Part shown: positions 9,492-63,312 of the stretch, one piece after another
Position numbering within the stretch: position 1 is the stretch's first letter
Layout: the number at the start of each line of letters is the position of its first letter
Assembly: GCA_949358305.1 (NCBI GenBank)
Contig: OX442320.1
Coordinates: 1,428,501-1,492,500, forward strand
Source of the DNA: Strigamia acuminata
Taxonomy: Eukaryota; Arthropoda; Chilopoda; Geophilomorpha; Linotaeniidae
Direction of reading: 5' to 3'
Length of the DNA stretch: 64,000 nucleotides
The notes under the pieces: model-generated
Database searches by the model: none
What the model was told of the DNA's origin: nothing
What the model saw: the letters and a program-made list of their open reading frames with translations, nothing else
Position numbers and translations under genes: made by a program

Positions 9492-9597
9492 CTTGGCCGT
9501 CTCGCCCGCCACTTTCACTGTTCAAAACCTCACCAAACTCGTCCTCGCGTATCGCCACCACGGAATCACCTCTCTCGCCACGCAAATCCACCACCAA

Positions 9598-14028: not shown

Positions 14029-14494
14029 TGAAGAGTTGCAATGGCCTGTGCGCTGTCGAAATAACTCGTAAACATCATTTTGGCTGGGCGGATAAATCGG
14101 ACACGCGTCCGCCATCTTTTATTACAAAAGTAAGTGTGTAACATAAAAACCCGGTTCGAGGCTAATCGCCCTCGATCTCAAACACAATGAAATCATAGAA
14201 CAAATCATTGTTTCAATACACTGACTTGTTCTTTACAGAAAGACAAAACTAATGGATAAAACAAACAGAACAACATAAACAATAAGTGCTCATTTGAGCA
14301 GATGACAGGTTGTGTGTGTTGTCACGTAATAGGAGTCGGTTGCGGTACAAAACCAGCATTGGGATTAAAAAACAGAATCAACCGACTGCAATACGGGACA
14401 TCAACATGGCAACACACTGATTGCATTTATCCACAATATGCAATCCGATAATCTACGCGGATGCGAGGACAAACAGGAAAACGTCAACCTAACA
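14029..14494 (-). repeat. Copia-1 3' LTR (466 bp)
   Basis: Direct repeat of 20475-20940, no difference by eye. In sense orientation it has a TGCTCAAATGAGCA palindrome (14287-14300), a hairpin AGAACAAGTCA...TGATTTGTTCT (14197-14232), a second hairpin CGAGG...CCTCG (14157-14174) and AATAAAAGATGGCGG (14109-14123). The same modules in the same order occur in the other copia LTRs of the window. Confidence 0.95.
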
Positions 14495-14509
14495 AATCCC
14501 CCTTCGTTT
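14495..14509 (-). other. Copia-1 polypurine tract
   Basis: On the minus strand GAAGGGGGATT sits directly before the 3' LTR, the same motif as in copia-2. Confidence 0.85.
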
Positions 14510-14511
14510 AG

Positions 14512-17445
14512 CTATTTGTCAATTACAAAGATGTATTCGCATAGCGCGTTCAATCTGGATTTAGCTAACCATTTCGTCAGAATATCCGCGACATTTAATT
14601 CGCCGGAAACATGCTCGATCAAAAACGTTCCTTTCTCAAACCAATCTCTAACGAAATGGAGCTTCACGTCTATATGTTTATTTGCCCTGTTCTCGATCCT
14701 ATTCTTACAGTATTGGATAGCCGGCTGGCTATCCGCAAAAACACAGGGCGTATTTCGCTCGAGACAAAACATTATCTTCGCGTCGTAAAGGCGCTCGAGC
14801 CAAATAACTTCTTTCACCCCATCGACCACGGCGAGAAATTCGCTCTCCATGATCGACAGGGAGGTCATCGATTGTTTGTGGCAATTCCACGAGATGGGAA
14901 TGCCACCCATATAGACAATATGTCCCCCAAAGCTTCGTCGTCTGTCTTGATCTAGGGCAAACGACGCGTCGGTGTAAACTGTCAAATTCTCGTTTTTACA
15001 GTTCGATAAGTTAATCGAATAATTCGACGTGGTGGCCAAATATCGCAGGACCTGCAGTAACATATTGACATGGCGCGTCGAATGCGTCTCGTTATACTGG
15101 GAAAGCACTATTACTGAAAACAGTATGTCGGGTCTGGTTCGGCTGGCGATGAACAACAGACTTCCGACCAGAGATCTGTACGGGAATGAGGTGTCGGCTT
15201 TTTCCCCGGTTCTTACACCTTGAATCATGGTTCCCGGGGTTACTGGAACCTTTACTCGATGGCACGAGTCAATCCCGTACGCTTTACAAAGCTTTTCAAT
15301 ATATTTCCGTTGGTGGATTTTAATCATGCCCCCGGACCTATCAAACTCAATTCCTAAAAGTAAAGTTACGGGCCCCAGACTCACTACTTCAAACGATTCC
15401 CGTAACCACTTCAAAACGCATTGTTCCACATAGTCATCCTTGGAAAACAACACGATATCGTCCACGTAAAAGATGACTATTGCATCGTTGTCTAGGGCAT
15501 AGACACAGTTTAAACCCAACAACGGTTGAAAGCCCAATTCAAGTAGTCGTATGTGGAGGACCTGGTACCACATACGACCGGACTGGTGTAATCCATAAAG
15601 TGCTTTTAAAAGCATCCAGCATTTATGCTTATTATGGGCGGTACGATATCCCTTGGGGATCTCCATGTACTGTACCGTATCGAGGTCCCCGTAAAGGTAC
15701 GCGGCCTTGATATCCAGGTGTAAATCCCGCCATCCCTTGAGTATTACCAAAGTGCAAAAGAACACTATCACTAGCACGAAGTTGACGACGGGGGAGAACA
15801 CCTCCGTAAAGTCAACTCCGGACTTTTGCTTAAAGCCCTGTGCGACAAGTCGGGCTCGGTAGCGTTGGATAACACCCGTGTGGTCGCGCTTCATCTTGTA
15901 TATCCATTTCGATCCCAAGAGAGTCGTACCCTCGTCTAAAGTTGTTTTGTCAACTTCCTTGTAAACCGTTCTTTCATCGAACACATCAATTTCCTCTCTC
16001 ATGGCTTTTATCCAATCAGGACGCTTGATGTGGTACATGGCTTCTTCGTAGGTTTCTGGCTCGACGGCACAGAAACCTGCAAACCCTAACGGTTCACCGT
16101 CCTCCTCTAATGTCTTAAAGTCAAATAAGGTCGCATCATATGCGTACCCTTCTTCATCGCACCACCGTGCGATATCAACTCGACTTCTTATCTTGTCCTT
16201 TAGGGGCGTGATGTAAACAACATCTATTTGTCCCGCCGTCGCTCCGTCTTTACGGACGGATGCGCGTCGTTCCCATTCCGCCATATTTAACGGCAGTAGT
16301 TCCGGATGTAACATCACGTTCCCTTGCTTTTTCTTTGATCGTGATCCACGCCATGTTTGAATCCCAGGAGGAATTTCAGGTTCCCCATCATTGTCAGGAT
16401 AGATGTTGAAGTAATTCCCATCATCCCCCTTCGCCCCACCAATTTCTTCAACAGGCCCATCCCCTGTATCCCCGTCCCCAAGAATAGGGTTCCCCTCAAC
16501 GGGCATGAGTGGGGGTTGCTGAGCTGCCTGTTTAGCGACTGGCCTCAATTCAGGTCTCAGAGTAGGCTTTGGGGTCGTGGGCAATGCGGGTTTCACTTTC
16601 TGCTGCGGAGCAGGTTGTGGAACCTCCTGTATCGCAGGAGGGGGTTCCGGGATTTCCGCCGGAATTGGGTCACCGACAACACTGTCGTCGTCAGAAAATG
16701 ACCCATTGAACGAGTCCGAACTCGAAGTATCAAAGTCATTCTCCAATTCAGGCGACGTAACCGTCCCCAATTCAAACCAGAAATTGTTTTCAAAAATTTT
16801 GACGTGTTTAGACAAAAACACCTGATTTTTATTTGGATCCCAAATTCTGTAGCCGCGTGTAGAAGCGGCATATCCAATTAATGCCCCAGCCCATGCCCTG
16901 TCTTGTAATTTCCCACCCCGAGTCTGAGATGGGATATGGACATAAGTCAATGAGCCAATGCACTTGACATGGCGAAGGGACAATTTCTTATTGTAAAACA
17001 CAGAATAAGGTGTTTTTCCCCCAATTCCCGTATGTGGAAAACGGTTTTTCAGATATACAACTGAAACGGCAAGCTCTGCCCATAGAGTGGCGGGAAATTT
17101 ATTCTCAAAAAGAAGTGCCCGAGTACCATTAAGAATGGTACGGTTCGCCCGTTCGGCGACCGAATTCATTTCTGGGCTGTATGCATTAGTCCTCATACAC
17201 TTAAGCCCAATTGTTGCCACATAATCGTCCCATTGTCTAGATATGAACTCCCCTCCATTATCAGTTTTTATGGCCTTTACCTTCTTAGAGGTCGTTCGCT
17301 CAACTTCAAGTAGCCACCGCTTGAAATGTCCTAAAACGTCACTTTTCCGTTTCATGATAATTATCCACATAAAGCGGGAAAAATCATCGATGAGAATGAG
17401 ATAATAGTACGCCCCACCCAATGTTTGAACTGGCGCGGGGCCCAC
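14512..17445 (-). pseudogene. pol: Copia-1 Pol, integrase core to RNase H (frameshifted part)
   Basis: This open frame of 977 codons continues gag-pol after the frameshift; it has no ATG of its own at the start. In order: integrase core (TDNGGEF with D62, E98 in SVAERANR), GKLQDRAWAG region, an acidic/proline-rich linker (about 230-385), an MBD-like segment (about 390-443), RT (about 475-720, YVDD at 660-663) and RNase H (YTDAS, MESEF, FADSQPAIQY). It ends with TAG. The domains are otherwise complete, so the single frameshift is the only visible lesion. Confidence 0.93.
16117..16278 (-). other. MBD-like domain in copia-1 Pol
   Basis: Between the linker and RT the protein reads EWERRASVRKDGATAGQ, then IDVVYITPLKDKIRSR, then ARW and LFDF. 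This follows the methyl-CpG-binding domain pattern WxRxxxxRxSGxxAGKxDVYYxxPxGKKxRSKxxLxxYL...FDF. The two DNA-contacting arginine positions (the R of SVRKDG and the R of IRS) and the D of DV are kept. The tyrosine that contacts methyl-C in MeCP2/MBD2 is Val here. The fold assignment is inference from motif similarity. Confidence 0.7.
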
Positions 17446-19358
17446 ACGTCTAAGTGCACTATTTCCAAAATACTTTTTGTCGTAATTCCAATTATTGGGG
17501 GAAAACTAGCACGTGTACTCTTCGCCCTGGCGCAAAAGTCACACGTCGACAACTCCTTATTCGAGAGTTTCAGCCCAAAAACATCAGTTGACTTTTCTAA
17601 TCCCGCAATTCCCTTTGCATTTAAATGCCCTAGGCGGGAGTGCCAAATGTCCATCGTTTGAGCCTTATCTTTCTTGTCAAAAGTTTTAACCCCATTAGTA
17701 GAATTGTTCCCATTCTCTGCTTTGTCTGCTTTGTTCTGCACAATTGAACTTGCCTCCTTAGAGGCATTGGCAGTCTTTGCCTTGATTTTATTCGAAACAT
17801 TCGCTTGCGCATTAGTCGTAATGTTCGCAGGCGCGTTTTTTGCAACACTCGCTTGCCCTTTAATCGCTGGTGCAGGTTTCCCTGACTCACTCGAATTTTG
17901 GGTTAATGCGTCCTTAAAACTAGGGTATGTTAGTATCGAATTTACAACTTCATCGCCTTTTATAAGCGGTCTAGAAGACACTGTCGCAGCCTGTTGCGCA
18001 GGTAATGCGGCAGTGTTCACAGGGGAAATACGACAATTGACCTTATACATCCGATCACTCGTGCGTTCCGCAGTGATGGAAGGGTCATCAATTTTGTCGT
18101 TATAAATAACCATTTTGCCATTTTTAATCATGGTCGTTGCCCCAGCTTCATCCGTGCGACCCAACGAAATCAAATTCTTCCTAAAGTTGGGTGCATAAAA
18201 TACATTATGCAATGTAATTGCACGGGTGCGGGTTCCGTAAATCGATGTCAACGTCACATTTCCTATTCCTTCGATTCTCGACTTTCCTTCTCCCTGTTGC
18301 ACGTGGCCAGTTAATGGCTTGAAGTCGGAGAACCAGTCTTTGTTGAAGGAGAAATGGTCCGTCGCCCCTGTGTCGACGTACCATTGCGAATCATAATTCG
18401 CGTGAGACACGTGGGAAGCCGGCACAGGGGGTTGTTGTTGAAGCCAAATCGCCGCGGAGTAATAAGAGACTGGAGAGTCGCTGAATATGTCAGCCTGTGT
18501 GACAGCGGCCTTTTGCTGGCCCCTTCCACGTCCCTTGCCCCGTGGGTTGCCTCTAAATTGTCCAGTTTGGTTTCCTTTTGCTTGGAATTGCTGTTTCGGT
18601 GGAGTAGGGCATTCACGGGCGAAGTGGCCCGTCCCACCGCAAGTAAAACAGATGCGTGGGCCGCCGGGTGCATTTCCACCACGTCCGCGTTGTCTTCCGC
18701 CTTGGTTAAAGAAGGCACCAGTGTTCTCCAATGGCGCCTTGGAAGGCACGCCAAACTCGTCGGTTGTTACATGTAGGCGGTTGTATTCGCCTACCAGGCG
18801 TTCCTTGACCGCTGCTGCCGTGAACTCTGTGTCACCCCAGTGATAAACCGTCTGCTTGACCGGTTCGTATTGGGGTGGCAGCAGGTCAAGATATTGGAAG
18901 GCGTGAAACTCGTCCGTAATTTTAATTTTAACGTCGGCAAGTTGCACGACCTTTCGGTCAACTCGTGCGGTGAAAACAAACATCTCTTCGTTTTCATGCA
19001 ACCGCATGTCCAAAAATTCCCTGCGAAGACGGGCTTTGCGTGCCCGGGTCGTGGGCTGGTAGGCAGCTTTCAGTGCCTCCCACACTTCTTTAGCAGTGGC
19101 CTGGGCAACCGCCACGACCTGTTGGGCCTCGCCGCAAGCCAAACAAATGGTGGAGCGGGCCCTTTCTTCGCCTTTCTCAAAATCCCTTGTCTCTCGAAAC
19201 GGTGATCCGGCCGGCGGCTCTTTTGTCTTGCCGGTCACGTGGCCCCAAACACCGTACGATTGGAGGAGGAGCTGTACCTGTACGCTCCAGGTCGGATAGT
19301 TGGTTCCGTCCAACTTTTTCACGTCCTTGTAATCATCATGGCGGTCGTAAGACGCCAT
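17361..19358 (-). pseudogene. gag: Copia-1 Gag-protease-integrase N-terminus
   Basis: The likely start is the ATG at 19356-19358 (MASYDRHDDYKD); the frame also runs upstream through a GTG. In order: Gag (DGTNYPTWSVQVQLLL, AFQYLDLLPPQY), one CCHC knuckle (CFTCGGTGHFAREC, about 237-250), protease motif WYVDTGATDHFS (DTGA about 329-332), a low-complexity stretch rich in Ala, Asn and Lys, the HHCC zinc site (WHSRLGH ... CDFCARAK), and the first integrase Asp (HLDVW). Directly after, a one-base loss in a G run shifts the frame and about 27 out-of-frame residues follow before the stop. Confidence 0.93.
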
Positions 19359-20474
19359 TTCGGGAAATTTGCGACGAAATTTAGTGAAGAACCGAAGCAC
19401 AAGTCACACAAACCACGTAAATTCGTCGCACGGATGCAGAATTCCCCCAAAAGTGAAGGCGAATAATGCACACTACCCGGGGAATCTCAATAAGTGAGAT
19501 TGAAAAACCTTGACTAGCAATCCCCCAACTCTTCCGTTCGCGCCTCCTGGGGCCCGCGGGATGGTTGGGTGGCCGTGGATAAGCCTAGCCAAGAATACAG
19601 TGCTACGTGCCCGACTGGACGTAGGGTAGCACCGATTCTAACAAGGAAAAAAACAAAAACCTTAATTTCTAACAGAGTTTCACGACAGTAAATTATATTG
19701 CACTTTTTGATGTGAAGTTGGTAAAGTTGCGGCGAATTGCGGGTGCAAAGCGTCGCAATAACGTCCTTCGAGGACGAAACGTTGCTCCCACGTCGTCGTA
19801 CGCACGGAAAATGGGCTGTCGTGCCGTCCGCGTGCACACTTCCGTGCGATCGCGGGAAAATCAACGTCGCGCTCGTCCGCGCCTTCGTGAGACGGACTCC
19901 GGGGTTCGAAACACGGAAAATAACGCCTGCACACACGCTTAACGTGTGCAGGACTTCTCGGTGACCGCAGACTTCTCTGCGTGTTGCAAAAATCGTCGGT
20001 CGCGACGATTTATCCAAAAAGAAAATGGCCGCCGTCGCGAAAATCTTCGATGACGACGTCCAAACGTGCTTATTTCGCACGGAAATCGACAATAAATGTT
20101 CCTACCGTCGAAAAAGATCCTGTTGTGGGTGTAATTGACCACACAACACTGCTGAAAAATCCCACGAAGCGCTGGCACTTGCAGCCACTCGTAGAATACA
20201 CAAAACACAAATTTCGACCGTCGTTTATTTCCACGACGTCGAAACGACGAAAAATACCGATTTTCGTGACGAAAACGTATCCAAATGTTCCGCTGATGGC
20301 GAGGAATCCTCCGCACACGTTGTGGCGACGATTCCACGTAGAAATCCGCACCGAAAACTCGTTTTTACGACGAGCTGGGCGGGCGCACACTCGGCGACTT
20401 CTCGTAGTCGCAAAATGGCCGTTTCTTCTTCAAAAACGTCGTTGCCAGATCGTTTTTACCCTCTGCTACCACTT
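19359..20474 (-). other. Copia-1 leader (5' untranslated region)
   Basis: About 1.1 kb between the 5' LTR and the gag ATG. It is CG-rich compared with the flanks. It shares long stretches with the copia-2 leader, including the hairpin CCTGCACAC...GTGTGCAGG (19926-19952) and CGTGAAACTCTGTTA. Frames of up to 192 codons exist but differ from the copia-2 frames by indels, so I treat it as conserved RNA or untranslated sequence rather than as a gene. Confidence 0.7.
20461..20472 (-). other. Copia-1 primer binding site, tRNA-iMet type
   Basis: Minus strand TGGTAGCAGAGG starts three bases after the 5' LTR. TGGTAGCAGAG complements the CTCTGCTACCA 3' end of animal initiator Met tRNA. Confidence 0.8.
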
Positions 20475-20940
20475 TGAAGAGTTGCAATGGCCTGTGCGCT
20501 GTCGAAATAACTCGTAAACATCATTTTGGCTGGGCGGATAAATCGGACACGCGTCCGCCATCTTTTATTACAAAAGTAAGTGTGTAACATAAAAACCCGG
20601 TTCGAGGCTAATCGCCCTCGATCTCAAACACAATGAAATCATAGAACAAATCATTGTTTCAATACACTGACTTGTTCTTTACAGAAAGACAAAACTAATG
20701 GATAAAACAAACAGAACAACATAAACAATAAGTGCTCATTTGAGCAGATGACAGGTTGTGTGTGTTGTCACGTAATAGGAGTCGGTTGCGGTACAAAACC
20801 AGCATTGGGATTAAAAAACAGAATCAACCGACTGCAATACGGGACATCAACATGGCAACACACTGATTGCATTTATCCACAATATGCAATCCGATAATCT
20901 ACGCGGATGCGAGGACAAACAGGAAAACGTCAACCTAACA
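20475..20940 (-). repeat. Copia-1 5' LTR (466 bp)
   Basis: Partner of 14029-14494, offset 6446 bp. It is followed by the target duplication CTTTC (20941-20945), after which the BEL LTR resumes. Confidence 0.95.
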
Positions 20941-23072: not shown

Positions 23073-23298
23073 ATGGCGGAACCTACAATGAGAGATCTTC
23101 TAACTGAGGATCAAATCGAAGTGCAACAACAACGTTGGGAGTCGCAAGTCACTGCAATGAATCATTTGTTGTCTATATCGGAGAAGACAGCAGATCCAGG
23201 TGAACTGGAAGCGCTGGTGCAAACTGCGACCCCGAAAGAAACGAGAATAGTCGGTGCGCTGAATGATCTACAGGAATATTCGGACCACGGCTATTATC
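23073..23298 (+). pseudogene. gag: BEL Gag, N-terminal part (split by copia-2)
   Basis: The ATG is in a good context (GAGAATGGCGGAACC). Seventy-five codons are read before copia-2 interrupts within TTATC. The frame continues exactly at 30210 (226 nt read, one base of the split codon left), so apart from the insertion gag is uninterrupted. The N-terminus is predicted helical (LLTEDQIEVQQQRWESQV). The host frame being preserved shows the BEL gag was still intact when copia-2 arrived, or has decayed little since. Confidence 0.85.
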
Positions 23299-23758
23299 TG
23301 TTGGTTTGCGATGAATTATTTGCGATAATCATATTTGTTGTGCATTTCCGAGTAGGCACAATAAGCGCGTTACTTCTTGTATTGTTACGAATGGTCAGCC
23401 AATTGATTTGATTTTTATCTATAAGCTTGTTCTGTACCGCAATTGGCTGTGTCGACTTGATAACGTGCGTTCCCGTCGTCTGCTTGTTAAGCGACGATAC
23501 TTTAGTTATGTTTGGTATTGTTTATCCATTACTTTAGCCTATGTTTTATTGTAAAGAATAAATCTATTCAATTGTGATAATAGATTTGTTCTCCTTGTTG
23601 ATCTGTAATCAAGGTTGAGATTATATAGCCTCAACCCAGACCACTGTTTTATGTTCTCACGGTGAATAAAGATGGCGGTCGCGTGTTGCGAATTAACCGC
23701 ACTTTGTAATTGCGTTTCCACTGATTTCCGAGAGCCACAGGACCGTTTTACCTCATCA
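23299..23758 (+). repeat. Copia-2 5' LTR (460 bp)
   Basis: TGTTGGTTTGCGATG...TTTTACCTCATCA. It contains GTCGTCTGCTTG, a hairpin AGAATAAATCTATT...AATAGATTTGTTCT, a second hairpin GGTTGAG...CTCAACC and AATAAAGATGGCGG (23665-23678). Confidence 0.97.
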
Positions 23759-24891
23759 AATGGTAGCAGAGGATCGGCGACGATCAACGCCGACCAATTT
23801 CGGGGAATTGACGAGTGAAACGGCCATTTTCCGACTACGAGAAGTCGCGAAGTGCGCGCCCGCCCAATTCGTCGTGAAAACGAATTTTCGGTGCGGCAAA
23901 CGTCTGGAATACGTGTGCGGACGATTGCACGAAGGATTCGACACGGAACGGTGTAAGGAACATTTATTTCGAACGATTTAAACTGTATTTTTGCCGATAT
24001 AACCGAGTTTTCTCGGGCGGCGCCATTTTTGTTGAGCTTCGCTGCAGAATACGGCGGAGTTAGTGTGTCCACGCGTGTGTACGGACCGGCACACGTACGC
24101 CCGACGATTCTACAACGGAATACGTCGACAGGACGGTATTTTGGAGCACAGAAACGTCCCAAAACCGTCATTTTTTTCGAGAAATCACCGTGAATCGACG
24201 ATTTTGTTACGGCGGCCATTTTTCGTCAAAAATAGACGGAAAAACGACGATTTGATTCACCGAGAAGTCCTGCACACGATAAGCGTGTGTGTGGGCAATT
24301 GTTTCCGTATCTCGCACCAGGAAAGCGAGTACGAAGGCGCAGACGGGCGCTACGACGATTTTCTCCGCGCTTACACGGATGTGTGTACGCGGACTGCACG
24401 TCAGCCGATTCCGTGCGAAGACAACGTGAAGCCGACGTTTAATCCAGCGTGGGAACCAGTTACGACGCGTGGAACCCGTAACTGGCCAACTTCACACCAA
24501 AAACTGTATTTTTCGAATTTTTCTCGTGAAACTCTGTTATTTATTAAGGTTTTTGTGTCGGGTCACTTAGAATATTCTGTACCCTTCGGGCAGTCGCCCC
24601 AGTACAGTCTCATTCCAGTCTGGGCTTGTCCGTGGCCAACTAGTCGTCCCGCGTCCCCCAGGTGGGCCGGTCGGAAGCTAGTAGGGCGACCAGATTTGGG
24701 TTTTTCATCTCACTTATTGAGGTGCCCCTTGGGAAGTGTAAAATTATTTCGCCTTCAATTTTTGGGGGCAAATTGCTTCTCCGTGCGCCATATTCACGTG
24801 CATGGTGAATATTTGTGTTTTTCCTGCGGGAATTTGTGAAATTTTTTGTGAAAAGTGATTCGTGCTTCTGTTTTCGCCGAATTTTCTCAAC
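23759..24891 (+). other. Copia-2 primer site and leader
   Basis: TGGTAGCAGAGG (23761-23772) follows the LTR after two bases and matches the complement of an initiator Met tRNA 3' end. The remaining 1.1 kb has no recognisable protein. It shares a hairpin (CCTGCACACG...CGTGTGTGTGGG, 24269-24295) and several long stretches with the copia-1 leader. An open frame of 258 codons (24063-24839) lies here but does not keep its frame in copia-1. Confidence 0.75.
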
Positions 24892-27800
24892 ATGGCAAGT
24901 TGGGATCGTCGTGACGATTACAAGGATGTGGAAAAACTGAATGGGACTAATTATTCGACTTGGAGTGTCCAAATACAACTCCTTTTGCAGTCGTATGGAG
25001 TTTGGGGCCACGTGACTGGCAAGGAGAAAGCCTTGCCAGCCACGGCTTCTGCGAAAGAAATCAGGGAGTTTGACAAGCGCGAGGAGAAAGCGCGCTCCAC
25101 CATTTGTCTGGCTTGTGGAAAAGCCCAACAGGTAGTGGCTGTGGCACACGAAGGGGCCAAAGAGGTTTGGGAAGCGCTCAAAGCAGCTTACCAGCCCACT
25201 ACCAGGGCACGCAAAGCCCGGCTTCGTCGCGAATTTCTCATGTTGAAACTCCATGAGCAAGAAGAGATGATGGTCTTCTTGGCAAGAGTTGACAGGAAAG
25301 CCCTGGAGTTAAAGGACATCCAAGTGGACATTTCTGACGAATTCCTGGCTTTTCAGTACCTGGATCTGCTGCCACATCAATACGAAACGGTCAAGCAGAC
25401 TGTCTACCACTGGGGAGACCCAGAATTCACGTCCAAGGCCGTCAAAGAACGATTATTAGGCGAATATAATCGCCTTTATGAACAAACAGATGAGTTTGGG
25501 GTTCCTGCAGGCATGGTGGATAATGCAAGTGCCTATTTCACCAAAGGCAGATGGCAACGTGGCCGGGGTGGAAATGTCTCCGGTTCTCCACGTGTCTGCT
25601 TTAATTGTGGTGGAACCAACCACTTCGCCCGGGAATGCCCTTCTCCACCTAAACAGCAACAAGGTGCTGCGAGAGGAAACCCGATAGGACAGTTCAGCAG
25701 GGGAAGTCAACGAGGGAAAAATCGTGGAAAAGGCCAGCAGAAGGCCGCCGTCACACAAATGGACATTTTCAGCGATTCCCCCGTGTCTTACTTCTCTGCA
25801 GCGATTTGTCAGGAGCAACCTCCGGTTGCAGTGTCGTTATTATCACATGCGAACTACGATTCGCAATGGTACGTCGACACAGGTGCGACGGACCATTTTT
25901 CGTTTAACAAATCCTGGTTTTCGGACTTTAAACCATTAACTGGTTATTCTGTGCAACAAGGCGACGGAAAGTCGAAAATCGAGGGCATCGGAAATGTGAC
26001 ATTAATCTCGATTCATGGACAACGTACACGTGAACTGACGTTGAAGAACGTTTATTATGCACCCAACTTCAAAAAGAATTTAATTTCTTTAGGTCGCACG
26101 GACGAAGCTGGGGCTACGACAATGGTTAAAAATGGTAAAATGTTTATTTATGATGTGACAATTGATGATCCTTCTATCACTGCGATACGTACGAGTGATA
26201 GAATGTACAAGGTCAATTGTCGAATTAATCCTAAAAATTCTGTAAACACTGTTGCATTGTCTGCGCAACAGAGTGCAACAGTGGCATCTAGTCCACCTTT
26301 AAAGGGTGGAGAAATTGTTGATCCTTTACTAACCCATTTAAATTTTAAGACCGCATTAACCCAAAATTTGAGTAAATCAGGGAAACCTGTACCTGCGAAT
26401 AAGGGGCAAGCGAAAACTGCGAATAATGCGCCAGCGATCGTTGCAAACAATGCGAGTATGGAAATTTCGAATCAACAATCGAGTGTTTTAACCGACACAC
26501 AGACTAGCTTAGTGGCAAGCAAGGGCAATAAGCCCAAGAATGCGAAAATTTTGAAAACAATGGTGCAAAACAATTTAACAAATGGAAATGGGGTTGTAGA
26601 TGGAAAGGATGCTTCCATTAAACCAGACAAACCCCAAACGATGGACATCTGGCACTCTCGTATGGGACACCTTAATGCGAAGGGAATTGCATTATTGAAC
26701 AAATCTACCGAAGTATTTGGTTTAAAGTTGTCCAACACGGAATTGTCGAGTTGTGATGCTTGTTCGAGGGCGAAAAGCACACGTGCCAGTTTTCCCCCCA
26801 TTGCGAACATTTCGACCAAAGGGATTTTAGAAATCGTCCATTTAGACGTGTGGGGCCCTTCACCAGTTAAGAGCATAGGTGGGGCGTACTACTATTTGGT
26901 CATGGTCGATGACTTCTCACGATTAATGTGGATCGTGATTATGAAGAAAAAGAGCGAAGTTTTGGGCCATTTTAAGAAGTGGTTAACCGAAATTGAAAGA
27001 ACGACTTCTAGGAAAGTCAAGTCAATTAAAACTGACAATGGAGGGGAATTTGTATCCAAACAATGGGATGAATATGCCAGTAGCATTGGACTGAAGTGTA
27101 TGCGAACGAACGCATACAGCCCTGAGATGAACTCGGTCGCTGAAAGAACGAACCGGACCATTCTTGGTGGCATCAGAGCTTTAATGATTGAAAATAGTCT
27201 TCCTCCATCCCTGTGGGCAGAACTCGCAGTTTCTGTCGTTTATTTAAAGAACCGGTTTCCGCATGCGGGATTGGGTGGGAGGACACCTTATAATGTGTTT
27301 TTCAATAAGAAATTGTCTTTACGCCACGTCAAGTGCATTGGTGCATTGACTTATGTACATGTCCCTTCACAAACCAGAGCTGGAAAATTGCAAGAAAGAG
27401 CATGGGCGGGGGCTTTGATTGGATACGCCTCTACCACTCGTGGGTATCGGATTTGGGATCCGAATAGAAACCAAGTTTTCCTCTCTAAGCATGTTAAAAT
27501 TCTAGAACAGAATTTCTGGTATGAAAATCTCCAGAATCCCCAACTGACTCCCTCGCCTTTCACTGACGATTCAGACTCGTCGGGTGAGGATTCTTTTGAT
27601 GACTCTGTCTCGGAGACAGATAGTGTCCACGGCGACCCCATACCCGAATATCCTGAAGGAGAAGGGGAAGAAGACCCCGTTGAGGGTGGGGCACCTGAGG
27701 ATTTCAACTATGTTGATGCAATGCAATACATCATTGGGGATTTAAATGTTATAAATGATGACGAAATCGGTGGGGCGAAGGGGGATAATAGGGATTTCTT

Positions 27801-29727
27801 CAACATTTATCCCGACGACGAAGATGAAAGCGAGGAAGTTGAGGACCCGGACGCAAGTCCTCAGTTATCACCTCAATTGTCGCCTACACTCCCTCGTCGC
27901 AACCCGCCTAGAAAAGGGAAAGACACTGGCGAACGTACAGCTTCAACTAGTGAATTGTTGCCTTTAGACATGACTTTATGGCAAAGACGACAGACTGTAC
28001 GCCAAAGTGGGGCAACAGCTGGGAAAGTTGATGTTTGGTACATCACACCAAAGCACGAGAAGCTCCGCAGCCGTGTTGAGGTTGTTCGTTGGTGTAAAAC
28101 CGAGGGATACGAATACAGATCAGAATTGTTTAATTTCAAAGATGTCACTATTGGTTTTGCTGGTTGCTGCTCTGTCGAGCCAGACACGTATGAGGAGGCC
28201 GTAACGGGAGTTAGTAAACCAGATTGGGAAAACGCAATGGAGGACGAAATAAACATTTTCAAAGAACGTGAGGTTTATGTCGAAGTCGACAAAGACCAGG
28301 TTAAAGACAAAACCTTATTGGGATCAAAATGGATTTACAAGTTAAAAAGAGATCACACGGGTACGATTAGAAGATATCGTGCTCGTCTTGTTGCACAGGG
28401 CTTTAAGCAAAAGCCGGGCATTGACTTTACTGAGGTATTTTCCCCGGTAGTCAATTTTGTGTTAGTCATGATGTTCTTTTGTATCTTAGTGGTACTGAGG
28501 GGCTGGCGTGACGTACACCTCGACATCAAGGCCGCATATTTATATGGGGACCTCGACGAAGTGCAATATATCCATATTCCAAAGGGATATCGAACATCTG
28601 AAAACCAACACAAATGTTGGGAATTGAGAAAATCTCTTTACGGACTTCACCAGTCTGGTCGTATGTGGTACCAGCGACTCCACGACCAGCTGATTGAAAT
28701 TGGATTTGAACCGGTCTTGGGTCTCAATTGCGTGTATAGCTTGGGGACTGACGCTATACTTATTTTCTATGTCGATGACATTGTATTGTTTTCAAAAGAC
28801 AACATAGCAGAGGAGTGCGTTTTGGATTGGATTCAACAATCATTTGAGATTGTCAATTTGGGCCCCGTCACCCTTTTGTTAGGGATAGAGTTTTGTAGGG
28901 ACGGGGAGAATATCTTTATTCATCAACGCGCTTATATTGCGAAGTTGTGCAAGCAATATGGGATCGACTCTTGTCATCGTGTTAGAGTACCTGGCACCCC
29001 AGGCACCATGATCCAAAAGGTTCAAACGGGGGAACGTGTCAATTCGAGTTTTCCGTATCGGTCTCTTGTCGGCAGTTTGCTTTTCATCGCAAGTCGTACA
29101 AGACCCGATATTCTGTTTTCGGTGATAGTGTTGTCTCAATACAACGAGACTCACTCGACTCGACACGTGAATATGCTGCTCCAAATCTTGCGATACCTAG
29201 GGAATACGCCAAATTATTCCATCAATCTTGGAAACTGTCAAAGTGAAAACTTGACCGTTTATACGGATGCGTCCTTCGCATTAGACCAGGACAAACGTCG
29301 GAGCTTTGGTGGGCACATCATCTACCTGGGAGGCGTCCCGATCTCTTGGAACTGCCATAAGCAGACCATCACTGCACTTTCCATTATGGAGAGCGAATTC
29401 TTGGCGGTGGTAGACGGTGTGAAGGAAATAATTTGGTTAGAGCGCATATTTGGTGCTGACGTGATGATGGATGGGTTTAACCGGCAAATACCGTGTGTAT
29501 ACGCTGACTCAATGCCAGCGATCCAATATGCGAAGAATCGCATAGAGAATCGCGCAAACAAACACATAGATGTTAAACTACACTTCGTGCGCGACTGGTT
29601 TGAAAAGGGTGTCTTTCGAATCAGACACATCCCGGGAACCCTTAATGTGGCCGATCTTATGACCAAGTGGCTGTCTCGCGCAAAACTAGATGCATTGTGC
29701 GAGCATATTTTTGTAGCGGCAAAGTAG
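24892..29727 (+). CDS. gag-pol: Copia-2 Gag-Pol polyprotein (1611 aa), with MBD-like domain
   Basis: I start at the ATG 24892 (MASWDRRDDYKD); an upstream GTG in frame is less likely. Numbering from there: Gag to about 225; CCHC knuckle C236-C249; protease DTGA 329-332; Ala/Asn/Lys-rich spacer; integrase zinc site H588, H593, C621, C624; catalytic D652, D715, E751 (D,D35E); acidic linker 880-1020; MBD-like segment about 1030-1082; RT with YVDD 1293-1296; RNase H with YTDAS, MESEF and YADSMPAIQY motifs. It ends with TAG. A single frame without a visible slippage site suggests Gag is made from the same frame, perhaps by spliced mRNA or protease processing. Confidence 0.96.
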   Translation: MASWDRRDDYKDVEKLNGTNYSTWSVQIQLLLQSYGVWGHVTGKEKALPATASAKEIREFDKREEKARSTICLACGKAQQVVAVAHEGAKEVWEALKAAYQPTTRARKARLRREFLMLKLHEQEEMMVFLARVDRKALELKDIQVDISDEFLAFQYLDLLPHQYETVKQTVYHWGDPEFTSKAVKERLLGEYNRLYEQTDEFGVPAGMVDNASAYFTKGRWQRGRGGNVSGSPRVCFNCGGTNHFARECPSPPKQQQGAARGNPIGQFSRGSQRGKNRGKGQQKAAVTQMDIFSDSPVSYFSAAICQEQPPVAVSLLSHANYDSQWYVDTGATDHFSFNKSWFSDFKPLTGYSVQQGDGKSKIEGIGNVTLISIHGQRTRELTLKNVYYAPNFKKNLISLGRTDEAGATTMVKNGKMFIYDVTIDDPSITAIRTSDRMYKVNCRINPKNSVNTVALSAQQSATVASSPPLKGGEIVDPLLTHLNFKTALTQNLSKSGKPVPANKGQAKTANNAPAIVANNASMEISNQQSSVLTDTQTSLVASKGNKPKNAKILKTMVQNNLTNGNGVVDGKDASIKPDKPQTMDIWHSRMGHLNAKGIALLNKSTEVFGLKLSNTELSSCDACSRAKSTRASFPPIANISTKGILEIVHLDVWGPSPVKSIGGAYYYLVMVDDFSRLMWIVIMKKKSEVLGHFKKWLTEIERTTSRKVKSIKTDNGGEFVSKQWDEYASSIGLKCMRTNAYSPEMNSVAERTNRTILGGIRALMIENSLPPSLWAELAVSVVYLKNRFPHAGLGGRTPYNVFFNKKLSLRHVKCIGALTYVHVPSQTRAGKLQERAWAGALIGYASTTRGYRIWDPNRNQVFLSKHVKILEQNFWYENLQNPQLTPSPFTDDSDSSGEDSFDDSVSETDSVHGDPIPEYPEGEGEEDPVEGGAPEDFNYVDAMQYIIGDLNVINDDEIGGAKGDNRDFFNIYPDDEDESEEVEDPDASPQLSPQLSPTLPRRNPPRKGKDTGERTASTSELLPLDMTLWQRRQTVRQSGATAGKVDVWYITPKHEKLRSRVEVVRWCKTEGYEYRSELFNFKDVTIGFAGCCSVEPDTYEEAVTGVSKPDWENAMEDEINIFKEREVYVEVDKDQVKDKTLLGSKWIYKLKRDHTGTIRRYRARLVAQGFKQKPGIDFTEVFSPVVNFVLVMMFFCILVVLRGWRDVHLDIKAAYLYGDLDEVQYIHIPKGYRTSENQHKCWELRKSLYGLHQSGRMWYQRLHDQLIEIGFEPVLGLNCVYSLGTDAILIFYVDDIVLFSKDNIAEECVLDWIQQSFEIVNLGPVTLLLGIEFCRDGENIFIHQRAYIAKLCKQYGIDSCHRVRVPGTPGTMIQKVQTGERVNSSFPYRSLVGSLLFIASRTRPDILFSVIVLSQYNETHSTRHVNMLLQILRYLGNTPNYSINLGNCQSENLTVYTDASFALDQDKRRSFGGHIIYLGGVPISWNCHKQTITALSIMESEFLAVVDGVKEIIWLERIFGADVMMDGFNRQIPCVYADSMPAIQYAKNRIENRANKHIDVKLHFVRDWFEKGVFRIRHIPGTLNVADLMTKWLSRAKLDALCEHIFVAAK
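27979..28137 (+). other. MBD-like domain in copia-2 Pol
   Basis: The segment runs WQRRQTVRQSGATAGKVD, then VWYITPKHEKLRSR, then VVRWC and LFNF. It matches the methyl-CpG-binding domain signature at nearly every conserved position: RxSGxxAGKxDVxY, P, K, RS, the aromatic core and a closing F[D/N]F. Equivalents of MeCP2 R111, D121, R133 and S134 are R1037, D1047, R1059 and S1060. The methyl-contact tyrosine (Y123) is W1049, with Y1050 next to it. Copia Pol proteins normally have no folded DNA-binding domain here. Assignment by eye only. Confidence 0.75.
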
Positions 29728-29744
29728 TTCATCGAAGGGGGATT

Positions 29745-30204
29745 TGTTGGTTTGCGATGAATTATTTGCGATAATCATATTTGTTGTGCATTTCCGAGTA
29801 GGCACAATAAGCGCGTTACTTCTTGTATTGTTACGAATGGTCAGCCAATTGATTTGATTTTTATCTATAAGCTTGTTCTGTACCGCAATTGGCTGTGTCG
29901 ACTTGATAACGTGCGTTCCCGTCGTCTGCTTGTTAAGCGACGATACTTTAGTTATGTTTGGTATTGTTTATCCATTACTTTAGCCTATGTTTTATTGTAA
30001 AGAATAAATCTATTCAATTGTGATAATAGATTTGTTCTCCTTGTTGATCTGTAATCAAGGTTGAGATTATATAGCCTCAACCCAGACCACTGTTTTATGT
30101 TCTCACGGTGAATAAAGATGGCGGTCGCGTGTTGCGAATTAACCGCACTTTGTAATTGCGTTTCCACTGATTTCCGAGAGCCACAGGACCGTTTTACCTC
30201 ATCA
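29745..30204 (+). repeat. Copia-2 3' LTR (460 bp)
   Basis: Partner of 23299-23758. It is preceded by the polypurine tract GAAGGGGGATT (about 29734-29744) and followed by TTATC (30205-30209). Hairpins lie at 30001-30038 and 30059-30082, and AATAAAGATGGCGG at 30111-30124. Confidence 0.97.
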
Positions 30205-30209
30205 TTATC

Positions 30210-31400
30210 TAGAATGCATTGACAAGCTTGAGACTATGCAAGCAAGAGTAGATCTTCTTCGCACGAGATATGAAATTTCAAAGCGATCACTTCCAACTTT
30301 GGGAGGAAGATTAAATACGTCGACAAGCTCAAATCAGAATACAACCTTGAACGCGACAGCAACGTTTAGAAAAACTTCGAAGCTGCCCAAACTGGATTCC
30401 GTAAAATTCGACGGAGATATTTTGAAGTACAGAACATTCAAAAGCAACTTCGAGACCTCCGTACACAAGGATCCAGACCTGAGTAACATTGAGAAACTTC
30501 AGTATTTACAAACCATGTGTACTGGAGAAGCGGCGATTCTCATCTCCACTTTTCCCCTGATCGAGGAATCATATGACCCGGCCAGGGAAGAACTCGAAAG
30601 ACATTTTGGTGATGAGGATGCCCAACAAACTGCGTTAATAAAATCAATTCGAGAATTAAAATCTGTTACGAGTGTATATCCAACGAAAGCGATAAAAACG
30701 AATTTGACAAAGATTTCTGCGACTATTAGACTTCTCGAGCAACTTAAGATTCCAATTCAAACTTCCGGAGCTTTCTTATTGCCCGACATAATTAGCAAGT
30801 TTCCAACTTCAATGGCATTAAGATTTTACCAAGTTCACGGAATTCAAAATAAGAACATTGTTACGTTGCTCAATTTCTTTGTGAATGAAGTTGCGATGGC
30901 CGAACGAACTGAAAACGTTTCGGAAAAATCGAAAAAAGACAAGAATGAAAAATCGGACGTAGAGAAAACGAAAGTGAAAGGTTCAATGACCACGTGCGCA
31001 ACCACTCAAGAAGCCAAGCAGTCTACTAGTGCAAAAACGAAGAGTGAACCGAAATCTGAAAGCAAGAATACGCCTTTCAAGACAAACAAGTGCATTTTTT
31101 GTGATGATGAACATTTAAACGGCTCTTGTAAAAAGGATTTCGAAATTAACGCGAAAATCGAAATAGTTAAGAAAAACCGACTGTGTTTTAATTGTTTCAG
31201 AACTGGGCATAGAGTGGGAGACTGCAAGGTCAAATTCTCTTGTAAACATTGTGGTGGGCGACACCATTCCACAATATGCAAAAAATCCGAGGTGAAGAAT
31301 TCAACGAACGCTGCGGAGAAGCCGAAGGAGCCACAAGTAACAACACATGTTTCATGCGCAATCTCGACGACTCTACAACTAATGATCTTCACCGCGGACC
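30210..31400 (+). pseudogene. gag: BEL Gag, main part, with zinc knuckles
   Basis: This continues the split gag frame. It reads KLPKLDSVKFDGDILKYRTF, the typical Pao/BEL (DUF1759-type) Gag signature, then helical capsid-like sequence, a Lys/Ser-rich stretch and three zinc-binding motifs (numbering from Met 30236): C286-C298, C317-C330 and C336-C348. In intact relatives the protease follows. Here the frame runs out at about 31380-31486 because the protease and RT are deleted. Confidence 0.9.
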
Positions 31401-33467
31401 TCAAAACAAAAATTGAAAGAATTGAAAGTACAACGTTGGCTGCAGACTTATTCCGGTCAAGACATCACTTTAGAAGTTTTCTGTGACGCAAGCACAAAGG
31501 CATTTGGCTGTTCAATTTTTGTCGTCAATCTGGAGGACAAAAGAACTTTATTGTTGAGTAAATGTCGTATTGCACCGACGAAAAAAGTGACTCTTCCTCG
31601 ACTTGAATTAACTGCAGCAGTGGTTGGAGTGCGAATGACCAAGTACCTGTTAGAAAACTTTCTTCCCGGTTACCCGGTCACTGAAGTGCGATACTACTCG
31701 GACTCCACCATAACTCTAGCCTGGATAAATTCGGACAAGAACGTATTGAAGCCATATGTCTCAAACCGTGTTCAAGAAATTATTTCTTCAACCAAACCCG
31801 AACAATGGTCTCACGTACCAACGGAATTTAACCCAGCAGATTTATTGACTCGACCACATAACTCAAAAACATTGATGCAAAATAAACTTTGGTGGTTTGG
31901 GGTTGATGTCGCGAAACTGGAAAAAAGAGAAATTATACAAGAGGATCTTCCAGAAGAAGAACGAAAAATCGTTGTGATGACAATTCAAGTGACAGAAAGC
32001 TTTATTGGTCGATTCTTCAAACGATTCCGAAATTACAACCGACTTTTGAGAGTTTTCTCATACATTTTGCGATGGAAAAACAAACTTTTGCGCGGTGAGC
32101 CTCTCTCGCCACTCGAGTTAGAGGACAACCAATTGAAGATCCTGCAATTTTCCCAGAAACTACATTTTTCTGAGGAGATTGATGATGTGAAAAACAAAAG
32201 AGAACTGTCTAAACATTCCACCCTACGCAATTTCGAGCTCTTCATTGACGAGGACGGATTACTTCGACTTCGTAGCCGCTTGAAAAAATCTTTATTGACA
32301 TTTGATGAGGTTTATCCAATTATTTTGCATTATGACAGTTGGATAACAAGACTGTTAATTAAGAAAGTACATCTGGAGTTGCTTCACGGTGACATAAGCG
32401 AAACCTTGTATCACCTACGCGAACAATTTTGGATTATAAGAGGACGAAGAACTATACAAACAGTTATTCGAGAATGTGAGATTTGCAGACGAGGAAATCT
32501 TGCACGCAACAACCCTTCAACGGGTGACCTTCCTGCTGAACGTGTGACACCAGCGGCGCCATTCCAAAACACAGGAGTGGACCACTTGGGTCCCATTTAT
32601 GTCGGCAGCAACAAGAAGGAAAAGAAAAAAGTTTACATCTTGCTTTTCACGTGTATGGTGACCCGTTCCATACATTTAGAAGTATCAGAGGACCTTTCTG
32701 TGCCAAAGTTTTTGCTTGCAATGAGAAGATTTGGGGCACGCCACGGATACCCAGGGAAGATTTTCTCTGATAACAGTAAGACTTTTCAGCGCGGGAGCGT
32801 CGAATTACAATCATGGGGGAAACTCATCGGTCATTCAGATGTGCAAACATTCCTATCAGATAAGAGAGTGCTTTGGACTTTCATCCCACCGCTGTCTCCA
32901 TGGATGGGCGCAGCGTGGGAGCGCTTAGTCCGCTCAGTAAAAGATAAACTTCGAAAAACTTTGTTGCGCAGCACTGTAGACTTGGAAACTCTCCAAACAT
33001 TGGTCTTGGAAATAAGTTCAGTGCTAAATTCCCGACCCTTAAGTTACGTCCCAGACAGTGTAGATGGTGGTAGAATTTTGGCACCTGAAAACTTTCTAAC
33101 AGGAGGCATGCCAAAATACGTAATAAACAAACAACTGAGTGCAATTAAAAAATCAGATTTAAGAAAACTGGACATTAAACGACGCCAATTTATTTGGGAG
33201 TTCTGGAAAATTTGGAAAAAAGGTTACCTCATGCAATTGAGGAATTTTTATGAATCCAAAGGTGATAAGTTCTTCAAAAACCCTAAAATAGACCAAATAG
33301 TGCTTCTAGAAAAAATGGGTACTAACCCATATTTTTGGCCACTTGCCAGGATAAAAGAAATTTTTCCCGGTGAGGATGGTCAAATCCGTGTGATTAAAGT
33401 TGTGCTACCCGATGGACGTGAGTTAAAAAGGTCAGTCAAGCATGTGAGAGCCCTAGAACTTGAGTGA
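31401..33467 (+). pseudogene. pol: BEL Pol remnant: RNase H, integrase, DUF5641-like end
   Basis: The frame opens just downstream of the deletion junction and has no ATG of its own. Numbering from 31413: RNase H motifs FCDAS (D25), LPRLEL (E65), YYSDST (D97), NPADLLTR (D143); integrase zinc site H320, H325, C355, C358; catalytic D390, D453, E503 with the D,D49E spacing of Pao integrases; then the conserved C-terminal region (FWPLARI, GEDGQIRV, RSVKHVRALE). It ends with TGA. The frame differs from gag by one, as expected for a random deletion. It cannot yield an RT. Confidence 0.92.
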
Positions 33468-43917: not shown

Positions 43918-43985
43918 TGTTGCGAATCAGTTCGAAACAGGAAATGCTTCTCGAAATAAAGGAAAACCTTGCATGCACTTTAAAG

Positions 43986-60363: not shown

Positions 60364-61560
60364 TTAAACACTATTTCTGAACATTCAGAGACATTGGTCT
60401 TGTGGTGTTTGTGCTAAGTCAACTATGATGAGATCAAAAGTCTATTCTCCCAAATGATTGCTTGGATGTTTCTAAAACTTACATTGGAGCCTTCTACTAA
60501 GGTTTAAACACTATTTCTGAACATTCAGAGACATTGGTCTTGTGGTGTTTGTGCTAAGTTAACTGTGATGAGATCAAAAGTCTATTCTCGCAAATCATTG
60601 CTTGGATGTTGCTAAAACTTCTCTTGAAGTCTTCTACTAAGGTTTAAACACTATTTCTGAACATTCAGAGACATTGGTCTTGTGGTGTTTGTGCTAAGTC
60701 AACTGCGATGTGAAATGAGCTCAAAATTTTTTTTTCAAAATTTATTGCTTGGATGTTGCTAAAACTTACATTGGAGCCTTCTACTAAGGTTTAAACACTA
60801 TTTCTGAATATTCAGAGACATTGGTCTTGTGGTGTTTGTGCTAAGTCAACTGTGATGAGATCAAAAGTCTATTCTCCCAAATCATTGCTTGGATGTTTCT
60901 AAAACTTACATTGGAGCCTTCTACTAAGGTTTAAACACTATTTCTGAACATTCAGAGACATTGGTCTTGTGGTGTTTGTGCTAAGTCAACTGTGATGAGA
61001 TCAAAAGTCTATTCTCCCAAATCATTGCTTGGATGTTTCTAAAACTTACATTGGAGCCTTCTACTAAGGTTTAAACACTATTTCTGAACATTCAGAGACA
61101 TTGATCTTGTGGTCTTTGTGCTAAGTCAACTGCAATGTGAAATAAGCTCAAAATTTTTTTTTCAAAATTTATTGCTTGGATGTTGCTAAAACTTACATTG
61201 AAGGCTTCTACTAAGGTTTAAACACTATTTCTGAACATTCAGAGACATTGGTCTTGTGGTGTTTGTGCTAAGTCAACTGTGATGAGATCAAAAGTCTATT
61301 CTCCCAAATCATTGCTTGGATGTTTCTAAAACTTACATTGGAGCCTTCTACTAAGGTTTAAACACTATTTCTGAACATTCAGAGACATTGGTCTTGTGGT
61401 GTTTGTGCTAAGTCAACTGTGATGAGATCAAAAGTCTATTCTCCCAAATCATTGCTTGGATGTTTCTAAAACTTACATTGGAGCCTTCTACTAAGGTTTA
61501 AACACTATTTCTGAACATTCAGAGACATTGATCTTGTGGTCTTTGTGCTAAGTCGACTGG
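60364..61560. repeat. Satellite array segment
   Basis: About eight monomers. The last is a 147-bp type that passes into copia-3 at AGTCGACTGGGATGTGAGA (about 61552-61570), where satellite and element are similar over about 20 bp so the exact junction cannot be set. Confidence 0.93.
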
Positions 61561-61563
61561 GAT

Positions 61564-63312
61564 GTGAGACCATATATTAGACAAACGGGAAGAGATGCTG
61601 GGACAACCTATGCGCATTATGTAGCGCCAGACAAGAAAAGGCTCCGCAGCAGAATTGAGGCATTGCATTGGTGTCAAGCAAACGGATACGAGTTTGAGGC
61701 GAATCTGTTTGATTTTTCGGGGAAAACTCAAAATGAAGATCTTCCGAACCCATTTGCTGGTTGTTGTGCGCTTGAGCCCAACACCTACGAGGAGGCAATT
61801 AAAGGCGAACGAAAGTCTGAATGGGTTGACGCAATGCAAGAAGAAATTGATATATTTAACGAAAGGAAAGTCTACGAGGAAGTTGATTGTGAGAAAGACC
61901 AACAATTGCTAGGCAGCAAATGGATCTATAAGATCAAGAGAGATAATACCGGGGTTATAAGACGTCATCGAGCGAGACTGGTCGCCCAAGGTTTCAAACA
62001 GCGACCAGGTATAGATTTCACCGAGGTGTTTTCACCTGTGGTGAATTTTGTTGTTATCTTGGTGTTATTTTGCATGTTGGTTGTCCTCATGAACTGGAGA
62101 GACACACATGCGGATATAAAATCCGCATATCTCTATGGAGACTTGGACGAGGTCCAATATATGAGCATTCCAAAGGGGTTCCAAACGCAGCAGAATGTTG
62201 GAAAGTGTTGGAAGCTTTATAAAGCTTTATACGGCCTGCACCAGTCGGGCCGTATGTGGTTCGAAAGGTTGCACGACAGACTGTTGCACATAGGATTTAA
62301 ACCGGTCCCTGGTTTTAACTGCGTTTATTGTATGGACAGAGATGTAGTGTTAGTCGTGTATGTCGATGACTTAGTCATTTTTTCACGCAATGAGAAGATC
62401 GAAAAAGATGTCCTGTCCTGGATAACAAACCATTTCCAAATGGTAAACCTTGGGCCAGTGACCCTTTTACTAGGCATAGAATTTACGCGTGTGAATGGCA
62501 AGATCTTAGTCCATCAGCGCAAGTATATCGAGAGATTGTGTGCTCATTTCAAAATCGATGGGTCGCATAAAGTTCATTTACCTGGGGCGGTAGGTACTAT
62601 GATAATGGGGGTGAAGAAGGACGAACAAATTGACACCGTGTTCCCCTACAGATCGCTGGTTGGTAGTCTTCTGTTTTTGGCGTCGCGAACCAGACCAGAC
62701 ATACTATTTTCCACTATTGTGCTCTCCCAATACAACGAGCGACATTCTCAGAGACATATTAATATGTTATTGCAAGTACTCAGGTACTTGAAGAACACTG
62801 AGGATTATTGTATTGATCTCTCGAGATGCAAAAGCGCTTTGCTGACGGTATTTACCGATGCGTCATACGCTACTGATGTAGACCAACGAAGGAGTTTCGG
62901 AGGTCATGTAGTTTTCCTGGGCGGTGTTCCGGTTTCGTGGTCGTGTAGAAAGCAGAAGATGACCACGTTATCCGTGATGGAGTCGGAGTTTGTGGCCATT
63001 GTTGATGGCGTCAGGGAACTGATATGGCTTAAGAGGCTTTTCAACATGTCGGTGATGTTCGACTACTTTGGGAATTTGCAGCCCTGTGTCTTAGCTGATA
63101 GCACAGCGGCAATACAATATAGTAAGAACCGCGTAGAAAATAAAGCGAACAAACACATCGAGGTTCGCTTCCATTATTTACGCGATCTGTATGAAAGCAA
63201 GATCTTTGATATCCGGCACGTTCCTGGAAAACTGAACGTAGCCGATTTGTTAACCAAATGGTTGGCTCGCCCACGTCTGACCGAATTGTGTGAGCACATC
63301 TTTGACATGTGA
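61564..63312 (+). pseudogene. pol: Copia-3 Pol fragment: MBD-like segment, RT, RNase H
   Basis: The open frame of about 582 codons is entered from satellite sequence and has no start codon of its own. The first 50 residues are MBD-like (RQTGRDAGTT, HYVAPDKKRLRSR, LFDF). RT follows (LLGSKWIYKIKRD, DIKSAYLYGDLDEVQY, YVDD at about residues 263-266), then RNase H (FTDAS, MESEF, LADSTAAIQY, NKHIEV). It ends with TGA. There is no internal stop or shift, so the fragment is young or recently truncated. It differs from copia-1 and copia-2 throughout, hence a third family. Confidence 0.93.

What the first reader, a model, noticed from the sequence alone, without database searches (positions are those of the whole stretch)
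27979..28137. MBD-type (methyl-CpG-binding) domain inside a copia Pol, between integrase and RT
The segment RQSGATAGKVDVWYITP ... LRSR ... LFNF follows the MBD signature over about 53 residues, at the same relative spacing as MeCP2/MBD2. Chromodomains in chromoviral integrases are the known precedent for targeting chromatin; I do not recall an MBD in Ty1/copia Pol. The domain sits downstream of integrase, where it could tether the complex to methylated heterochromatin, in keeping with copia insertions in and around a satellite. Function is inference.
Basis: partly seen in the sequence, partly recalled or inferred. Interest (0 to 1): 0.92.

Follow-up and report, generated by a model that had tools for sequence, protein, structure and literature searches.

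The report
Methyl-CpG-binding-type domain in copia retrotransposon
A family of jumping genes carries, in the protein that pastes it into DNA, a domain of the kind cells use to read DNA methylation; the domain is real and kept by selection, but in this copy the residue needed to prefer methylated DNA has changed, so it probably binds CpG DNA in general.

Summary
Residues 1030-1082 of the copia polyprotein at 24892-29727 match Pfam MBD (PF01429) at 42 bits (cut-off 21), and a model has the MBD fold. All three copia copies in the window carry it, between integrase (SH3) and reverse transcriptase. It is not a generic copia linker: 0 of 10 other copia copies read from this genome have it. It marks one RT clade, has at least 149 matches here, and occurs in 22 of 120 listed relatives from other sources. 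Close lineages show purifying selection. Both CpG-contacting arginines are kept in 9 of 9 host representatives. The tyrosine for methyl selectivity is kept in 20 of 22 outside relatives but is W, V, I or H in the amplified clade of the window's copies. A methyl-specific heterochromatin tether is therefore unlikely for this element; an MBD3-like CpG-binding module is likelier. Copies cluster in megabase zones, unlike MBD-less copia or BEL, but gypsy does too. No local CpG preference was seen; satellite words were minor in 1 of 20 sampled flanks. Eight paper searches showed no MBD in copia.

The parts
23299..30204 (+). copia element A, complete, with 5-bp target-site duplication TTATC; next to a BEL-type ORF (named by eye)
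   Evidence: LTR pair 99.8% identical over 463 aligned bp (23296-23758 and 29742-30204), duplication read from sequence
24892..29727 (+). gag-pol ORF, 1611 aa: gag, zinc knuckle, beta-barrel (Pol_BBD), integrase, SH3, MBD, RT
   Evidence: Pfam hits in order
27979..28137 (+). MBD domain, residues 1030-1082 (W-type: tyrosine position is Trp)
   Evidence: Pfam 42.2 bits; fold; residues
28297..28992 (+). RVT_2 reverse transcriptase, residues 1136-1367; 52 residues lie between it and the MBD match
   Evidence: Pfam
14029..20940 (-). copia element B, duplication CTTTC, LTRs 100% identical over 466 bp; its frame changes between the overlapping ORFs 17361-19403 and 14512-17505
16036..16311 (-). MBD segment of element B (V-type) with its flanks as aligned
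   Evidence: Pfam 35.8 bits for the ORF; alignment
61552..63312 (+). copia element C, 3' part only, its open frame starting at the satellite junction, at the start of its MBD (H-type, D32 also lost)
   Evidence: Pfam 24 bits

Best explanation
The segment is a genuine MBD fixed in the linker between integrase and reverse transcriptase of one clade of Ty1/copia elements, found in this genome (an animal, probably an arthropod, by inference), in a spider protein and in unnamed sources. Most likely it is a DNA-binding module on the integrase tail (or the RT N-terminus; the protease site is not known) that holds the integration complex on host DNA at CpG sites through its two arginine fingers. In the clade of the window's copies the methyl-sensing tyrosine was replaced, so binding is probably weakly or not methyl-dependent, as in vertebrate MBD3; relatives that keep the tyrosine may read methyl-CpG. 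Shown: domain identity, place, clade restriction, conservation, loss of the tyrosine, zone bias. Inferred: DNA binding, tethering, methyl-independence.
For: Pfam, PDB-sequence and fold matches. R22, R44 and S45 kept in 9 of 9 host representatives; R22 in 21, R44 in 18 and S45 in 20 of 22 outside relatives. dN/dS 0.07-0.09 for the three closest lineage pairs, dS near 1. MBD-positive rows are one side of a 95/100 supported RT branch (14 against 16 rows). Same position as the Ty1 and Ty5 integrase targeting segments (passages of PMC9673352). Two arginines read CpG and a tyrosine gives methyl selectivity, with Phe in human MBD3 (passages of PMC5240623 and PMC9520026). Different chromosomal distribution from MBD-less copia: nearest-neighbour labels agree in 73.5% against 54.2% expected, 0 of 5000 permutations; 1-Mb bins rho -0.15.
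Against: No binding was measured. Zone bias is shared with gypsy (rho 0.43), of which the two loci read have no MBD and no chromodomain at E <= 10. The W lineage, that of element A, shows no zone bias in its few copies: 0 of 8 in V-rich bins; Tyr-type 1 of 6. CpG density of MBD flanks does not differ from random sites of the same zones (p 0.13), is not significantly higher near the junction (p 0.07), and the first 25 bp hold 31 CpG against 34.4 expected. The MBD changes faster than RT: its pN is higher in 14 of 15 lineage pairs. Ty1's integrase C-terminus also contacts RT (PMC9673352, passages), so a role inside the element is open.
Confidence: 0.55

Rival explanations
1. The MBD is a methyl-CpG-selective reader that tethers integration to methylated chromatin.
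For: Host has DNMT1-type genes; 20 of 22 outside relatives and 4 of 9 host representatives keep the selectivity tyrosine; zone bias.
Against: Tyrosine is W, V, I or H in the clade of all three window copies; satellite nearly CpG-free; flank CpG o/e about 1.2, so no sign of methylation decay there.
Confidence: 0.12
2. The MBD serves the element's own replication (binding its cDNA, bridging integrase and RT, or keeping the complex in the nucleus) and does not choose targets.
For: Position directly before RT; integrase C-terminus of Ty1 contacts RT (PMC9673352, passages); no local CpG preference at junctions; zone bias shared with gypsy.
Against: MBD-less copia of the same genome do without it and differ in distribution; the CpG-reading arginines are kept.
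Confidence: 0.27
3. The MBD is a captured relic without function; zone clustering is due to where insertions survive.
For: Loss of the methyl-selectivity residue; zones shared with gypsy; faster change than RT in 14 of 15 pairs.
Against: dN/dS 0.07-0.09 between close lineages and 0.21-0.46 in the five other pairs with a finite dS; 149 of 150 matches without stops; kept in divergent relatives.
Confidence: 0.05

Closest known systems
Chromodomain of chromoviral (Ty3/gypsy) integrases
   Same: Chromatin-reading module attached after the integrase core of an LTR retrotransposon (recalled; mentioned in passages of PMC9289625)
   Different: Other superfamily (gypsy), other fold, reads histone marks rather than CpG DNA (recalled); no chromodomain found in element A
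Ty1 and Ty5 integrase C-terminal targeting segments (AC40, Sir4)
   Same: Same superfamily (copia) and same place, the integrase tail before RT (PMC9673352, passages)
   Different: Short protein-binding stretches, not a folded DNA-binding domain (partly recalled)
Human MBD3 / invertebrate MBD2/3
   Same: MBD with both arginines kept and the selectivity tyrosine replaced (Phe in MBD3; PMC9520026, PMC5240623, passages)
   Different: Host NuRD subunit; here part of a retrotransposon polyprotein, with W, V, I or H at that place
DNMT-bearing retrotransposons of dinoflagellates and charophytes
   Same: Retrotransposons that took up a DNA-methylation protein (PMC5890265: start of abstract in the listing, term search)
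   Different: A writer, not a reader; the main text holds no 'MBD' and no 'methyl-CpG'
Non-canonical domains of plant LTR elements
   Same: Systematic screen for added domains (PMC9289625, passages)
   Different: All 15 atypical domains there were in gypsy; no domain gain seen in plant copia, apart from envelope-like genes reported earlier

Membership tests
MBD domain family (PF01429) | HMM match above Pfam's cut-off | tested here: met
   42.2 bits against 21
MBD domain family (PF01429) | MBD alpha/beta fold | tested here: met
MBD domain family (PF01429) | Two CpG-contacting arginines (R22 and R44 of MBD1) | tested here: met
   Both present; 9 of 9 host representatives
Methyl-selective MBD (MeCP2, MBD1, MBD2 type) | Tyrosine at MBD1 position 34 | tested here: not met
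   W in element A, V in B, H in C
Methyl-selective MBD (MeCP2, MBD1, MBD2 type) | Measured preference for mCpG | not testable with these tools
   needs a binding assay
Ty1/copia LTR retrotransposon | gag, integrase, then RVT_2 in one ORF | tested here: met
   Pfam order
Ty1/copia LTR retrotransposon | LTR pair with short target-site duplication | tested here: met
   A: 99.8%, TTATC; B: 100%, CTTTC
Chromovirus | Chromodomain after integrase | tested here: not met
   none at E <= 10 in element A's ORF
Generic copia RT extension | Present in all copia of the genome | tested here: not met
   0 of 10 MBD-less copia copies at E <= 10

The most novel reading that the evidence does not exclude
An old clade of animal copia elements uses an integrase-tail MBD as a DNA-methylation reader for choosing targets, and the lineage that lost the methyl-sensing tyrosine became methyl-independent and amplified, a switch from methyl-directed to general CpG-rich chromatin that is recorded in copies of both kinds in one genome.
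Probability: 0.25. Interest if true: 0.85.

Novelty: new variant of a known kind. Interest (0 to 1): 0.72.

Why it matters
Chromodomains are the known case of a chromatin reader built into a retrotransposon integrase (recalled), and a plant screen saw no domain gain in copia (PMC9289625, passages). A conserved MBD in copia would give a natural test of whether mobile elements read DNA methylation when they choose sites. Tyr-bearing and Tyr-less forms exist side by side, in a genome with DNMT1-type genes and with MBD-less copia as built-in controls.

Tried and rejected
Chance match: rejected. Generic copia linker: rejected. Satellite targeting: little support; of 20 flanks one (L059) has about 13% satellite 13-mers, and none is over 20%, as in the 20 MBD-less flanks and 40 random sites. 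Local CpG targeting: no support. MBD flanks are richer in GC and CpG than MBD-less copia flanks (CpG 5.79 against 3.36 per 100 bp, p 0.0017), but random sites in the same zones are not distinguishable (p 0.13), so the difference may belong to the zone. The zones were chosen by eye from the MBD copies, which is circular for them; the bin correlations and the cross-lineage test are less so. In one search lineages were assigned by score group, with only representatives sequenced. Not on the 11 large contigs, and so left out of the bins: 16 of 149 MBD matches, 3 of 150 MBD-less copia, 5 of 150 BEL, 8 of 150 gypsy. All four sets are the best-scoring 150 of 1068 to 4147 candidates, not all copies. 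A protein-database search with residues 985-1140 alone found nothing (569 candidates); the longer region did. The own HMM was seeded with two of the database proteins, so those two of the 22 hits are by construction; P0006 is marginal (E 0.005), and named spider protein P0033 has no Pfam MBD at E <= 1. Only 8 of 21 lineage pairs gave a finite dS for the MBD and none of 15 for RT. Eight paper searches aimed at an MBD in copia or other LTR elements showed none; I saw listings (in only the top rows), and only open PubMed Central text is searched. Searches were for background.

Full report
What is there. The window holds three copia copies. A (23299-30204, plus) is complete: LTRs 99.8% identical over 463 bp, 5-bp duplication TTATC, one open gag-pol frame of 1611 aa. 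B (14029-20940, minus) has identical 466-bp LTRs and duplication CTTTC, but its frame is broken. C is a 3' part from 61552, starting at a satellite junction. In A the Pfam order is gag, zinc knuckle, Pol_BBD barrel, gag-pre-integrase, integrase core, SH3, MBD (1030-1083), RVT_2 (1136-1367).

How many and how old. In the 237.5-Mb genome, 150 of 150 scored candidates (of 1092) pass the cut-off. One of the 150, at C3:20309085, is probably a host exon. The 49 loci that I read (30, 19) all have copia RT sequence after the MBD. Of the 149, 119 lie in open frames of 1500 aa or more, and scores repeat exactly over dozens of copies, so the families look young. LTR identities of A and B agree.

Not generic. 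None of the 150 best RVT_2 matches of the genome (of 2633 candidates) lies within 3 kb of the 150 MBD matches. In 10 of them searched with Pfam, SH3 and RVT_2 are found but no MBD at E <= 10. In an RT tree the 14 MBD-positive and 16 MBD-less rows fall on the two sides of one branch (support 95/100); several rows are near-copies and some positive rows are broken with long branches, so one origin is not excluded rather than proven.

Outside this genome. A search of public proteins with residues 985-1605 gave 857 relatives. Of the 120 listed, 7 carry PF01429 together with PF07727 in the database's own annotation, 22 match an HMM of the segment (two of them were in its seed), and 16 of 27 members of alignment A2, the query included, match Pfam MBD at E <= 0.01. 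Of the 22, 21 come from contigs under 7 kb without a named organism in the listing; one is named, from the spider Stegodyphus mimosarum (P0033), with a segment seen by the HMM but not by Pfam.

Key residues. MBDs read CpG with two arginines, and a tyrosine gives methyl selectivity; human MBD3 has Phe there and shows little or none (passages of PMC5240623 and PMC9520026). In MBD1 numbering (recalled; the spacing equals that of MBD2 in PMC9520026), R22 and R44 are kept in 9 of 9 host representatives; R22 in 21 and R44 in 18 of 22 outside relatives. The tyrosine is kept in 20 of 22 outside relatives (one F, one R), but in only 4 of 9 host representatives: A has W, B and another V, one I, C H. In the RT tree C and the W, V and I rows fall together (98/98), so the loss was probably a single step at the base of the amplified clade. 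The domain is still under constraint there: dN/dS 0.07-0.09 for three close pairs and 0.21-0.46 for five wider ones, although its amino-acid change exceeds that of RT in 14 of 15 pairs.

Where copies land. MBD copia and MBD-less copia keep apart: nearest neighbours share the label in 73.5% against 54.2% expected (0 of 5000 permutations; 67.5% against 54.0%, 1 of 5000, when neighbours under 100 kb are ignored). In 1-Mb bins MBD copia correlates with gypsy (rho 0.43), not with BEL (-0.03) and negatively with MBD-less copia (-0.15). Six zones chosen by eye, 8.7% of the 11 large contigs, hold 68 of 133 MBD copies, 8 of 147 MBD-less, 9 of 145 BEL and 41 of 142 gypsy. Bins rich in the V lineage (20 of 229) hold 12 of 33 I-type copies against 9 of 147 MBD-less (Fisher 2e-5), but 0 of 8 W-type and 1 of 6 Tyr-type. 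The two gypsy loci read have no chromodomain at E <= 10. So an MBD is not needed to land or survive in the zones. Fine-scale tests gave nothing clear: flank CpG is not distinguishable from random zone sites (p 0.13), the first 200 bp are somewhat richer than 600-900 bp away (7.25 against 5.67 per 100 bp, p 0.07, 18 of the 20 flanks, those with a mapped junction), and the first 25 bp are not (31 against 34.4).

Mechanism. The integrase tail is where Ty1 and Ty5 carry their targeting segments, and in Ty1 it also contacts RT (passages of PMC9673352). A folded CpG-DNA-binding domain there most simply anchors the integration complex to DNA. Methyl selectivity is unlikely for A. The satellite, which holds 35 CpG for about 617 expected, offers almost no CpG sites.

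Novelty. Eight paper searches aimed at this showed no MBD in copia in their listings. A plant screen found 15 atypical domains, all in gypsy (PMC9289625, passages); DNMT capture by retrotransposons is known (PMC5890265). I file this as a new variant of a known kind: an LTR retrotransposon with a chromatin/DNA reader added to the integrase-RT region.

Noticed in passing
L102-L106, L110, L114, L116 (linker between SH3 and RT): 8 of 16 MBD-less copia loci (three of them near-copies; a weak ninth is L108) carry AT-hook-like basic GRP motifs where the MBD sits in the other clade; 0 of 8 MBD-positive loci do. Different DNA-binding modules may fill the same slot. AT-hook is my reading; Pfam listed none in the ten loci.
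   Followed up: partly
1-5233, 11756-13592, 33541-34429, 35938-39801, 41912-43920, 53189-58108, 60360-61564: A 140-bp satellite almost without CpG (35 against about 617 expected) and with 1.4-fold TpG+CpA, as after methylation decay or from its founding unit.
   Followed up: partly
L031-L041 (G000 C1 and C3): 11 exon matches that look like four DNMT1-type genes and one DNMT2-type gene (typed by eye); one DNMT1-type exon checked against the PDB (E 2.9e-52).
   Followed up: partly
G000 C1 62-67, C3 0-6.7, C12 0-1.2 Mb and others: Young gypsy copies (1270- and 1327-aa frames) share zones with MBD copia; one locus of each read has no chromodomain; cause unknown.
   Followed up: partly
P0005, P0007, P0008, P0009: Relatives whose linker has a diverged segment (W...RP.G...F.F) at the MBD place that the HMM does not call, perhaps a decayed MBD.
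   Followed up: no
61552-61800: Copy C's MBD has lost both the tyrosine (H) and the aspartate (Y), the most altered of the nine host representatives at these places.
   Followed up: no
5511-9521 (-), 30143-33467 (+), 59050-59991 (-): A gypsy element, pieces of a BEL element next to A, and a piggyBac-like transposase; named by eye from the translations.
   Followed up: no
G000 C3:20309085-20309201: The weakest listed MBD match looks like an exon of a host gene rather than copia.
   Followed up: partly
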